Positions 47,544-51,402 of a stretch of DNA of 64,000 nt are shown in pieces. The stretch spans positions 1-64,000 of the forward strand of contig NZ_MSCV01000039.1 in assembly GCF_002005105.1 (NCBI RefSeq), read 5' to 3'. Below the pieces are notes generated by a model, which searched no databases, was not told the DNA's origin, and was given only the letters and a program-made list of their open reading frames with translations. Source of the stretch: Methylocaldum sp. 14B. Its GTDB lineage: Bacteria > Pseudomonadota > Gammaproteobacteria > Methylococcales > Methylococcaceae. The translations under genes and the position numbers were made by a program. How positions within the stretch are numbered: the stretch's first letter is position 1; each line of letters opens with the position of its first letter.

Positions 47544-48133
47544 CACGGCTCTCCCATTTTCAAAACGGCGCCATCGTCTTATCAATTATCACGCCAGATC
47601 CGTATCTATTTGTTTTTACGAACCGCTTTGAAATTACACAGTTTTTTTCTGTAAACTCCGCGAAACATTCGGCTCTCCCAGCGCTTCCCGTGAACCGAAT
47701 CTCGGCGATCGCCGGACCTTGCCAAAGACCATCCGACCGATTGTAGGGAATTGATCGACAAAACTTTTTTCGACAGCAAGTGCGCCACCGCCACTCGATC
47801 CGGGACACGTAAAATTTTCCGACACCAGGATGGCGCCGCCTTTGTCGTATCGGCGATTCAGTAGGACCAAGAGCAGACGCGACCGGTGGCCCGAACGATG
47901 CCTTGGGCGATCCGGCGCTCGGACGACCGCTCCAGGAACGCGGCTAGCCCGTTTTCCGAATCGGTGTAAGGGATTCGGATATGTAGGTCGGCAATCCCTT
48001 GCCGACGTATCGGCTCGGCGAAGGGCTTTGTCGGAAGGGTCGCGACTAAAGCGACCGTTTGCGATTGGGAAGGGATTGTCGACCTACGTTCTCCCCTCCT
48101 GGAACGAATCCGTACACCGGGATGGAAAACGCT
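47544..48133. other. Intergenic region with repeat copy C
   Basis: About 590 bases without a convincing gene. The first half is the AT-rich upstream region of the secreted-protein gene. The second half is dispersed repeat copy C (47946-48135), which runs into a MITE-like element at 48134. Confidence 0.55.
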
Positions 48134-48135
48134 CT
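47946..48135. repeat. Dispersed intergenic repeat, copy C
   Basis: It contains GTAGGTCGGCAATCCCTTGCCGAC, the CGCGACTAAAGCGACCGTTTGCG block (inverse of copy A) and a right end GGAAAACGCTCT. The left end (AGCCCGTTTTCCGAAT) has diverged. Confidence 0.65.
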
Positions 48136-48238
48136 AAGTACATTCAGGGAAGTCTTGCGGCATAGGCAACCTGCAGGACAACCCCGCCAATCAAGCCAAT
48201 CTGTCGAGAGTCCGCAAATATTTGCGGAATGTACTTAG
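48134..48238. repeat. Short MITE-like element with 12-bp terminal inverted repeats
   Basis: Ends CTAAGTACATTC (48134-48145) and GAATGTACTTAG (48227-48238) are perfect inverted repeats 105 bases apart. Just inside the right end is a perfect 18-bp palindrome TCCGCAAATATTTGCGGA (48211-48228). No coding capacity. Confidence 0.6.
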
Positions 48239-48327
48239 CCCGGATATTTCACCAAGAAGAGGTCGGCACAGCGTTGAAATCCCCATAAAATCAAATTGCG
48301 AAATCAATTTTGTGGGGAGCTGTGCCG

Positions 48328-48985
48328 ATGCCAAAGCGTACCGCGGAAACGATAGAATTTGGGCGTCTCGGACGCCGGGTGATCGAGGCGAATTTTTCGG
48401 GGGGTGCCGTCAGTTCGGATGGCGGGTTGCGGCTGTTGCGCCAAGTAGACCAGTACCTCGGCTTGTCCAAAGCCGTGGCAGAAGTTCTGACGGATCCCCG
48501 CGATCCGGAGCGGATTGTTCATTCCTTGCGCGACCTCGTTGCCCAGCGGCTCTATGGCCTGTGCTGTGGGTACGAGGACTTGAACGATCACGACCGGCTA
48601 CGGCACGATCCGTTGCTGCAAACGGCCTTGGGCAAGGTGACGGCATTGGCCAGCAGCCTCACGTTCTCCCGCTTGGAGACCCGTGCGACGCGTGCCGATG
48701 TGGTGGCCTTGAACCGGGTGCTGCTCGAGCAGTTCATCGCCGGCCAATCTCGAGCGCCCCGTGAACTAATCCTCGACGTCGACGCCTCCGACGTGCCGCT
48801 GCACGGGGGCTAGGAACTGGCCCAGTTTCACGGCTACTACGACCACTACTGCTATTTGCCGTTGTATGTTTTCTGCGGCCAGGCCCTGCTGGCCTGCTTG
48901 CTGCGCCCGAGCCGGATCGATGGCGCCGAGCTTCGGCCGCGGTGATCAAGCTGCTGGCGAGGCGCTTGCGGCAGGCGTGGCCGAT
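48328..48985 (+). pseudogene. Degenerate IS1380-family transposase fragment
   Basis: From ATG 48328 the frame reads like the N-terminus of IS1380 transposases (ANFSGGAVSSDGGLRLLRQV, then LYGLCCGYEDLNDHDRLRHD and [15 protein letters not shown]). A TAG at 48811 replaces a likely CAG: family-like sequence continues ([16 protein letters not shown]). A frameshift follows near 48930, then [16 protein letters not shown], and homology stops at about 48985 against a group II intron fragment. CCCGGATATTTCACC at about 48239 may be the left end of the element. Non-functional. Confidence 0.85.
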
Positions 48986-48986
48986 G

Positions 48987-49421
48987 TCTCACGGGCTTCT
49001 GCCTTCTTTGACTTCATCGAGGTCTGTTCGCCTACTCGCGTTCTACCAGGTTCGACCCTTCAGTCTACCGACCTACTATGGCTTCGGCTGACTTCTGGCA
49101 GACCCTCCCACGATCTCTCGACCGCAGTAGCACAAGGCAGACTGCCAGATCTCCCCGGGTATGACGCACCCGCCTTCACGCTTATACCTGTCGGATCTAC
49201 GACACGGCGTTCCGTGCAAGTTTCGGGCTTTGACGATAATGGCCGCCTCACCCCACCGTGCCGCCTCCTATCCGCTTCCTGTGCGTCAGGCCACCGCTTT
49301 GCCTTCGGCTTCCTTCAGATTCGCGGTCACCCGCGAAACCCTTGCCGTTCGGCTAACTCTTCCCCTTGCCCGGCGAGTAGAGGACTTTCACCTCCAAATG
49401 AGTGTGCTCTGCCGGGCGCAC
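48987..49421 (-). mobile_element. 5' fragment of a group II intron (domains I-III), ORF and 3' end lost
   Basis: On the minus strand the sequence starts GTGCGCCCGGCAGAGCAC at 49421 and continues with wording typical of bacterial group II introns: GGAGGTGAAAGTCCTC, GAAGGAAGCCGAAGGCAAA, GACGCACAGGAAGCGGATAG, CATACCCGGGGAGATCTG, AGAAGTCAGCCGAAGCCATA and GAAGGGTCGAA. It breaks off at about 48987, where the reverse-transcriptase gene would follow. No domain V or intron-encoded protein is present. The 5' end lies four bases after the T tract of a terminator. Confidence 0.82.
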
Positions 49422-49425
49422 CATA

Positions 49426-49456
49426 AAAAAAGACCTACTCGAAAGTAGGTCTTTTT
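49426..49456 (-). terminator. Rho-independent terminator of the small lipoprotein gene
   Basis: AAAAAGACCTACT and AGTAGGTCTTTTT form a 13-bp perfect stem with a 4-nt loop, T-rich on both strands. On the minus strand it follows the lipoprotein stop by 21 bases, and the group II intron fragment begins immediately after it. Confidence 0.9.
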
Positions 49457-49477
49457 GAAGGGAGGATCACGTACTAG

Positions 49478-49600
49478 TTATAGCTGTGGGGATACGGCTG
49501 TATTCGATAATTTCTGGGAATCCCCGTCAGGCGAACTTCCACATCCCGTTAGGCCAATAGCGGCAACGACGAGACAAACCGCAGCAAGTAGCTTCTTCAT
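49478..49600 (-). CDS. Tiny entericidin-like lipoprotein
   Basis: A 40-residue lipoprotein precursor: MKKLLAAVCLVVAAIGLTGC, then a Gly/Ser/Asp-rich tail ending AVSPQL. The lipobox LTGC predicts cleavage before Cys20, leaving a mature lipopeptide of about 21 residues. A strong GGAGGGAATC site precedes the ATG at 49600, and a strong terminator follows, so the unit is complete. Size and layout recall entericidins, but no sequence identity can be claimed. Confidence 0.75.
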   Translation of the reverse strand: MKKLLAAVCLVVAAIGLTGCGSSPDGDSQKLSNTAVSPQL

Positions 49601-50037
49601 GATTCCCTCCGCATTAAGTATCAGTAATTAACTAAATTAGCCATTAATGACGCTACTTATATCGCCTATTTCAGGCGTAATTTGTTTACCAGTTCACGGC
49701 CACTTCCGTCAAGACGATATTTTCGATCAGATGGCTGTCCCAAAGTTCCTTCGTCAAGCATCGCGCTGGCGAACGGTCTTCTCTTGGAAGGCTTTCTCCT
49801 TGGAGCCCATCCCAGTAAGCCGTTCGCCCTGAGCCCTTCGACTCCGCTCAGGACAGGCCGGTCGAAGGGTTTCTTGAGCCTACTGGGATAGGCTCTTGGT
49901 CCGGAAGACATATGAGACTGCCTTTCTTCCTTTCGGTACGACCGTCATCAGTCGGGCATTCGGCCGAAAAGGGCGTAGTGCTTGCCAGAACATGGCTACG
50001 GTGGGTTGAATCGTCCGATTTTCATTACCCGGAATGT
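49601..50037. other. Intergenic region with a REP-like inverted repeat
   Basis: 437 bases between two leftward genes. It includes the AT-rich promoter region of the lipoprotein gene (49605-49660) and an inverted repeat at 49810-49888: outer arms TCCCAGTA/TACTGGGA and inner arms CCCTTCGAC/GTCGAAGGG around a TTCGACTCCGCTCAGGAC core common in bacterial REP sequences. No gene is supported. Confidence 0.6.
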
Positions 50038-51402
50038 TCATTGGCTCTGATATTTCTTAACCAGATCTTGGATCTCGTCCACTTCTTCTCTATGAGCTTG
50101 ACGATAAAGCTGATGAGCTTCGCGGATACTCGCCAGGTGCTTTTCGATATTCTCGGAAGTCAGCAAAACGCCGAAATCGTCAGCGATCCGACGATTCGGA
50201 TCCGAGTAATTCAACACGCGATCGAGCACCAGGTCACCCAGCTCTTTCCGATAGTGAGAAGATTCCCAAAACCACCGCATCATGGTTTCCTTGTCACCCA
50301 AGGCCGGTACAGCCTCCATGGTATAGGTATTGAAACCGGAAAAGTCCCATAGAGGGAAGGGATTGCGTCTGCGTTCCCGTGCGACCTCTTCATTAAGTCG
50401 GACGATCTCTCTTTTCCAAGTCTCCCATTCATCCCAAAGCCCCGTGCCGGCCGTCAGTACCCATTGGCGTGCGTGAGCCGGGGAAATCAGAATATGGAAT
50501 TCAATCTTGCTCCGGTGAGCCTCTTCAAGAATCCTTCGAAAGTAATCAAACGTATTCGTGCTTCCGTCTTCCGAAACAAAATCGAATTTCTTGTGTGGCC
50601 TTGGGAAATACAGGTGCGTCACGTAATTCAGTTCGCTATAAAGAGCCGCTTCGTGCCGTCCTCCGTGCATCATCATGATCGCTTCTTTATCGGGCTGTTC
50701 CACTTGTCCGCGCGGCAGAATCACATTATCCCGATTGGTCTGTTGAAACAGGGTCTTGAGGCTTGCTGTTGTGGCATCAACCGATGCCAAGGTTTCCAGC
50801 AGGTCCGTGGTTATAGCGATATTCCGTTTGGCCCCGTGAACATCCGACGAGAGTCGTTCCTCAGTGAAATCCGGAGCATTAGGTCTATAGGCATTGAATT
50901 GGAAGAAGTCGACGGCCAATACGACTTTCTTTAATCGTCGTTCTGCATTGGCGTGCTGAAAGTAGCGCAAATTTTCATAGATAGTCGCTCCATTCAACGC
51001 GAGGTTGTAGGTGTTAAATTCGGGGAACAGCGCCGGATGCTCCGGATCAAGGCCGTGTTCGGTGCGAGAGCTGCCGATGACCAGTACGTCGGGTTTTCGT
51101 GCTCTAACGGCGTGGGCCTTGGTCAGCCGCAGTTGCTTGAATAACTCCGGCTTATTGGCATTTATCCCTTCCCAGCTTGGAGACCCGAAAATGGAATAAG
51201 GGTCTACCAGGTAATTCATCAGGATGATTACAGTCAAAAGAACAACGGCACCGATACCGATCGTATCGAGATAAGCCGCGAATTGGCGTTCGCTTGGCGT
51301 CACTGGGCCCTTGCCCAAAAGCCGTGAAGAAATCGTAGCAGGCCCGGCAGATCGGAGTCGGGATAAAAGGGAGGAATCGGGCTTCGCGGCGGGTTTATTC
51401 AC
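50038..51402 (-). CDS. Membrane-anchored SGNH-like protein, partner of the MBOAT acyltransferase
   Basis: A 454-residue protein with one membrane segment (about 48-66), then a large extracytoplasmic domain. VLVIGSSRTEHGLDP (about 104-118) resembles block I (GxSx) of SGNH-type esterases and transferases such as AlgJ/AlgX or DltD. It is encoded six bases after an AlgI-like MBOAT protein, the usual pairing in which the MBOAT carries the acyl group across the membrane and the SGNH partner adds it to a polymer. It starts at GTG 51402. The substrate is unknown. Confidence 0.75.
   Translation of the reverse strand: MNKPAAKPDSSLLSRLRSAGPATISSRLLGKGPVTPSERQFAAYLDTIGIGAVVLLTVIILMNYLVDPYSIFGSPSWEGINANKPELFKQLRLTKAHAVRARKPDVLVIGSSRTEHGLDPEHPALFPEFNTYNLALNGATIYENLRYFQHANAERRLKKVVLAVDFFQFNAYRPNAPDFTEERLSSDVHGAKRNIAITTDLLETLASVDATTASLKTLFQQTNRDNVILPRGQVEQPDKEAIMMMHGGRHEAALYSELNYVTHLYFPRPHKKFDFVSEDGSTNTFDYFRRILEEAHRSKIEFHILISPAHARQWVLTAGTGLWDEWETWKREIVRLNEEVARERRRNPFPLWDFSGFNTYTMEAVPALGDKETMMRWFWESSHYRKELGDLVLDRVLNYSDPNRRIADDFGVLLTSENIEKHLASIREAHQLYRQAHREEVDEIQDLVKKYQSQ

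What the first reader, a model, noticed from the sequence alone, without database searches (positions are those of the whole stretch)
48987..49421. Group II intron remnant seated right behind a transcription terminator
The intron 5' end (GTGCGCCC) lies four bases after the T tract of the lipoprotein terminator, the placement known for group IIC introns, although I cannot assign the class from this fragment. The intron has lost its reverse transcriptase and 3' domains and is fused to a dead IS1380 transposase in the opposite orientation.
Basis: partly seen in the sequence, partly recalled or inferred. Interest (0 to 1): 0.52.

Follow-up and report, generated by a model that had tools for sequence, protein, structure and literature searches.

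The report
Decayed group IIC intron behind terminator
The front 430 bases of a class C (IIC) group II intron, a self-splicing jumping RNA, still sit directly behind the transcription terminator they once jumped to, cut off by a broken insertion sequence; this is a clean but ordinary remnant of a known kind of mobile element.

Summary
On the minus strand, window 49421 to about 48990 is the 5' part of a group II intron (Rfam RF02001 135.6 bits, RF01998 55 bits), starting three bases after the T tract of the terminator of a 40-codon lipoprotein-like gene. Intact relatives, up to 85% identical over the whole remnant, encode a reverse transcriptase nearest GsI-IIC RT without an endonuclease domain, and their domain V carries CGC: class IIC. 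All 118 sampled copies with this 5' end lie behind a terminator-like hairpin, against 43 of 354 random positions. Two species of the same genus carry the same gene and terminator without the intron. The remnant ends about eight codons into the reverse transcriptase gene and abuts the N-terminal half of an oppositely oriented IS1380 transposase pseudogene. No other copy of this subfamily was found in the genome. Domain V is gone, so it should neither splice nor move. It is a dead member of a known kind; interest is low.

The parts
49478..49600 (-). 40-codon lipoprotein-like gene (5' exon side), kept with its neighbour in two species of the same genus
   Evidence: Reading frame seen in the sequence; 77.6% DNA identity over window 49760-49425 to G001 and G002; no Pfam match. 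'Lipoprotein' rests on a signal peptide and Cys read by eye.
49425..49456 (-). intrinsic terminator: hairpin GACCTACT-TTCG-AGTAGGTC extended by A/T pairs, T tract 49431-49425
   Evidence: Fold of the 45 bases before the intron -16.0 kcal/mol, 10 nt from the last G-C pair to the intron; similar hairpin and T tract in G001 and G002
49422..49427 (-). IBS1 (TTTATG), last six bases of the 5' exon
   Evidence: Register found by IBS1-EBS1 covariation over 27 copies
48990..49421 (-). group IIC intron remnant, nt 1 to about 430 of a roughly 1,890-nt intron
   Evidence: Aligned to nt 426-430 with 74.7-85.1% identity in the eight best-covering relatives; eight intact copies are 1,873-1,930 nt
49165..49336 (-). 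domain I core, Rfam group-II-D1D4-3
   Evidence: RF02001 135.6 bits, full model; four intact relatives 134.2-141.6 bits
49236..49241 (-). EBS1 (CATTAT)
   Evidence: Mean 3.59 of 6 pairs against 2.84 +/- 0.13 when exons and introns are shuffled, reached by 0 of 2000 shuffles; the window's own copy pairs at 4 of 6 (counted by eye)
49055..49130 (-). stretch before domain IV, Rfam group-II-D1D4-1
   Evidence: RF01998 55.0 bits; four intact relatives 53.4-68.6 bits
48993..49017 (-). first eight or so codons of the intron-encoded reverse transcriptase
   Evidence: MKSKKAEA against MKPMKTEA of L170; the start codon is inferred
48328..48982 (+). N-terminal half of an IS1380 transposase pseudogene (TAG at 48811-48813, apparent frameshift near 48930-48940)
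   Evidence: PF13701 2.9e-48 on 48337-48810; tblastn with ISPosp7 56% over residues 1-205 of 441

Best explanation
It is the 5' part of a mobile class C (IIC) group II intron. An intact ancestor retro-inserted at the hairpin and T tract of the lipoprotein-like gene's terminator, guided by the hairpin and a short IBS1-EBS1 pairing (placement and covariation shown here; the chemistry is taken from the IIC literature). Later an IS1380 in the opposite orientation came to lie near by, and a deletion removed most of the reverse transcriptase gene, domains V and VI, the 3' exon junction and the C-terminal half of the transposase, joining the two stumps at about 48982-48993 (inferred). Without domain V and the reverse transcriptase the remnant should neither splice nor move, and behind the terminator it should be rarely transcribed (inferred).
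For: Rfam scores as high as in intact relatives. Up to 85% identity to relatives from nt 1 to about 430. Ten of 11 relatives printed have a stop-to-stop frame of 469-531 codons with YADD (the eleventh 269); RVT_1 and maturase domain and no endonuclease model in 3 of 3 scanned; L170 nearest GsI-IIC RT, 477 bits, against 145 (6me0) and 128 (LtrA). 118 of 118 copies stand behind a hairpin plus T-rich stretch, against 43 of 354 random positions in the same loci. Seven of 7 copies in relatives found by similarity follow a hairpin (by contig, five of these are also among the 118). IBS1-EBS1 pairing exceeds all 2000 shuffles at one register of five. Intron-free loci in G001 and G002 keep gene and terminator up to the boundary. 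Truncation is common in the family: 14 of 33 other copies with at least 500 nt downstream stop before the intron 3' end.
Against: Domain V, the best class marker, is absent from the window, so the class rests on relatives, and no tree was built. The window's 3' flank does not match that of the intron-free loci; the gene that follows there has its counterpart on contig C30, so the locus was rearranged further and the order of events cannot be recovered. Beyond the outer end of the IS1380 fragment lies a dispersed repeat, not intron or the expected 3' exon, so whether the IS entered the intron or its flank is unknown. The window's own IBS1-EBS1 pairing is only 4 of 6.
Confidence: 0.95

Rival explanations
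1. The 3' part was lost during insertion (incomplete reverse transcription) and not by a later deletion.
For: Copies without the 3' end are frequent in the family (14 of 33).
Against: Target-primed reverse transcription starts at the intron 3' end (established knowledge), so an incomplete copy should lose the 5' end. Here the 5' end is perfect and the break meets a second truncated element, the IS1380.
Confidence: 0.04
2. The intron/IS1380 fusion is an assembly chimera.
For: Draft assembly of 84 contigs; introns of this family break assemblies in relatives, as seven G002 contigs begin or end in the intron 5' end.
Against: The junction is inside a 65-kb contig. No second copy of this intron and only partial copies of the IS1380 stretch (275 bases at 88%, 178 bases at 70%) were found in the genome, so no repeat is known at the junction that could cause a misjoin.
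Confidence: 0.03
3. The retained 5' half is kept because it acts, for example as a structured RNA at the end of leaked lipoprotein-gene transcripts or by trans-splicing with another intron's domain V.
For: Domain I scores as high as in intact copies.
Against: No other copy of this subfamily was found in the genome, so no matching domain V is known there. It lies behind a terminator. High scores are also expected after a recent truncation.
Confidence: 0.02

Closest known systems
Bacterial class C / group IIC introns inserted after intrinsic terminators (Robart et al. 2007, known to me here only through citations in PMC8919778, PMC4424553, PMC7161350)
   Same: 5' end directly behind a terminator hairpin; endonuclease-less reverse transcriptase in intact relatives; short EBS1-IBS1; about 1.9 kb when intact
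   Different: Reverse transcriptase and 3' half lost; joined to an IS1380 fragment
GsI-IIC intron reverse transcriptase (PDB 6ar1)
   Same: Best solved relative of the L170 protein, 477 bits over residues 84-492
   Different: The window keeps only about eight codons of the gene
IIC-like intron on contig C12 of the same genome (L026)
   Same: RF02001 136.1 bits; reverse transcriptase also nearest GsI-IIC RT, 466 bits; behind a hairpin
   Different: Another subfamily (not found with the remnant's DNA); 464-codon frame; its hairpin has no T tract

Membership tests
Group II intron | Domain I structure | tested here: met
   RF02001 135.6 bits and RF01998 55.0 bits, both full models above the cut-off
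Group II intron | Domain V with catalytic triad | tested here: not met
   None in the window; present in intact relatives (RF00029 46.6-48.6 bits in 4 of 4 intact loci scanned). Hence filed as a remnant, not as an intron able to act.
Group IIC / bacterial class C | Insertion directly after an intrinsic terminator | tested here: met
   Window, and 118 of 118 sampled copies; intron-free sites in G001 and G002
Group IIC / bacterial class C | Class C intron-encoded protein without endonuclease domain | tested here: met
   In relatives only: L170 nearest GsI-IIC RT; RVT_1 and GIIM and no other Pfam model in 3 of 3 relatives of this subfamily. No tree was built.
Group IIC / bacterial class C | CGC in place of AGC in domain V (that CGC marks IIC is recalled; [quoted passage not shown]
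   In relatives only: 10 of 11 loci printed read TGAACCGCCG where domain V starts; the eleventh (L163) is truncated before it
Group IIC / bacterial class C | EBS1-IBS1 pairing | tested here: met
   27 of 39 copies usable; 3.59 of 6 pairs against 2.84 shuffled, 0 of 2000
Group IIC / bacterial class C | EBS3-IBS3 pairing to the 3' exon | not tested
   The 3' exon junction is deleted in the window; not examined in relatives
Class C-attC introns | Insertion at an attC site of an integron | tested here: not met
   Target read directly: a terminator hairpin with T tract behind a lipoprotein-like gene. No attC model was run.
IS1380 family | DDE transposase of group 1 (PF13701) | tested here: met
   2.9e-48, model positions 4-153 of 435 only; C-terminal half missing

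The most novel reading that the evidence does not exclude
Decayed 5' halves of IIC introns behind terminators, of which the window is one, may be kept because the folded 5' domain modifies the 3' end of transcripts that leak through the terminator, so that the truncated forms are a stable end state and not debris.
Probability: 0.02. Interest if true: 0.4.

Novelty: new member of a known kind. Interest (0 to 1): 0.13.

Why it matters
It is a tidy example, with intron-free sister loci, of terminator-targeted insertion by a class C intron followed by decay. It adds one host (probably Methylococcaceae-like, judged from the record titles of two relatives in its family) to a widespread, mostly proteobacterial subfamily in which all sampled copies obey the rule. 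It changes no view of how these introns work.

Tried and rejected
Class outside IIC: rejected on reverse transcriptase scores and placement. The lost 3' half: not found near the remnant or in the stretch before the displaced 3' gene on contig C30. Another copy of this subfamily in the same genome: none found. Ends of the IS1380: no inverted repeat could be fixed with ISPosp7 (one search gave only 6-7 base chance matches). The weak STnc370 and MIR848 rows are below their cut-offs and taken as chance; STnc370 covers the terminator hairpin. Papers: I saw search listings (one search found none) and passages found by term in PMC8919778, PMC4424553, PMC7161350 and PMC12350094; I read none in full. 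Robart et al. 2007 is not held.

The IBS1-EBS1 test used 27 of 39 copies long enough; 12 gave no match to the anchor, and one of the 27 (L072) was anchored at a wrong place because its domain I is partly deleted. The control used random positions, not intergenic ones. The distance count depends on the fold and reads 0 in 20 of 118.

Full report
What is there. On the minus strand the window shows a small lipoprotein-like gene (49600-49478), its terminator, and then the start of a group II intron at 49421. Rfam finds two domain I-IV models at full length, RF02001 at 49336-49165 (135.6 bits) and RF01998 at 49130-49055 (55.0 bits), above their cut-offs of 32 and 35. The lax Rfam scan of 47600-50100 gives no domain V. 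Folding of the strand is only mildly better than shuffled (z -2.16, 2 of 100 shuffles as good), so the case rests on the family models and on homology.

Relatives. Among the 80 listed titles most hosts are beta- and gammaproteobacteria. Of the 33 copies with at least 500 nt of downstream sequence, 12 reach the intron 3' end (8 of them without a large deletion), 7 are intron to within about ten bases of the end of the stored DNA, and 14 stop earlier. The 8 intact ones are 1,873-1,930 nt long. The window remnant aligns to L170, L108 and L173 at 83.7-85.1% up to nt 429-430, that is to about the eighth codon of the reverse transcriptase gene.

Class. The L170 reverse transcriptase is nearest GsI-IIC RT (476.9 bits), then 7uim (359.6), with 6me0 at 145.3 and LtrA at 127.9 (that 6me0 is a IIB and LtrA a IIA maturase is recalled). 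Pfam shows RVT_1 and the maturase domain only. Domain V of the relatives begins GAACCGCC in 10 of 11 loci printed, that is CGC where most group II introns have AGC (that CGC marks IIC is recalled; one search gives a passage saying AGC or CGC). Passages in PMC4424553 and PMC8919778 state that class C proteins lack the endonuclease domain and that class C introns insert after terminators.

Placement. All 118 pattern copies follow a hairpin with a T-rich stretch (fold below -12 kcal/mol and at least 4 T in 8), against 43 of 354 random positions in the same loci; with at least 5 T in 8 the counts are 117 of 118 against 20 of 354. The 118 upstream 45-mers give 117 distinct sequences. The distance from the last G-C pair to the intron is 9 or 10 nt in 51 of 118 and 10 in the window; 20 of 118 read 0, where the fold pairs beyond the stem. 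Copies in relatives found by DNA similarity follow hairpins in 7 of 7; by contig five of these are also among the 118, and the G003 copy has CC in place of the first GT. EBS1-IBS1 covariation appears at one of five registers tried: 3.59 of 6 pairs against 2.84 +/- 0.13, 0 of 2000 shuffles, 27 copies.

Intron-free sites. In two species of the same genus (G001, G002) the gene, its terminator and the neighbouring 454-codon gene are kept (77.6% identity over the last 340 bases, 82-83% over the larger gene), and the match ends at window 49425. Both read TTTTTTTGTTG where the window reads TTTTTTTATG followed by the intron. So the terminator site was there without the intron. In both relatives a gene on the other strand follows (a GGDEF/EAL-type regulator by eye, not searched); its counterpart in the window's genome is on contig C30, behind a dispersed repeat of the kind that also lies left of the IS1380 fragment. 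The locus was therefore rearranged beyond the fusion itself.

The fusion. The IS1380 fragment on the + strand matches residues 1-205 of the 441-residue ISPosp7 transposase at 56% identity, with an in-frame stop; by eye the similarity goes on in another frame for about 15 codons and then meets the intron. Its DNA recurs in the genome only in part (275 bases at 88%, 178 bases at 70%). Two truncated ends meeting within about ten bases are best explained by one deletion. The order of IS arrival and deletion is inferred.

Verdict. The class can now be named IIC, by relatives. It is a dead member of a known kind, and its interest is that of a well-documented example.

Noticed in passing
window 47940-48238: Dispersed repeat; the query that holds it has 89 matches in the window's own genome and 87 in G003.
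   Followed up: partly
window 49802-49896: Another dispersed repeat; the query that holds it has 46-67 matches in each of the four genomes of the genus, most of them to this stretch.
   Followed up: no
L026 about 876-2810 (G000 contig C12): Intact IIC-like intron of another subfamily, behind a hairpin that has no T tract.
   Followed up: partly
L027 (G000 contig C30) and L028 (G000 contig C51): Two more reverse transcriptases in the genome: one beside group II models D1D4-7 and domain V, one in a 1,048-codon frame not examined.
   Followed up: no
L177, first 178 nt of the intron; L072, first 448 nt: Internally deleted copies that keep both intron ends; L177 joins nt 1-108 to the last 74 nt, L072 keeps nt 1-148 and about the last 300 nt.
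   Followed up: partly
L136, L160, L174, L114: Copies whose similarity ends after the first 50-83 nt, from draft assemblies; real decay and misassembly were not told apart.
   Followed up: no
G002 contigs C78, C63, C76, C47, C81, C88, C84: Seven contigs begin or end within the intron's first 70 nt, as expected if this genus-mate holds many near-identical copies.
   Followed up: partly
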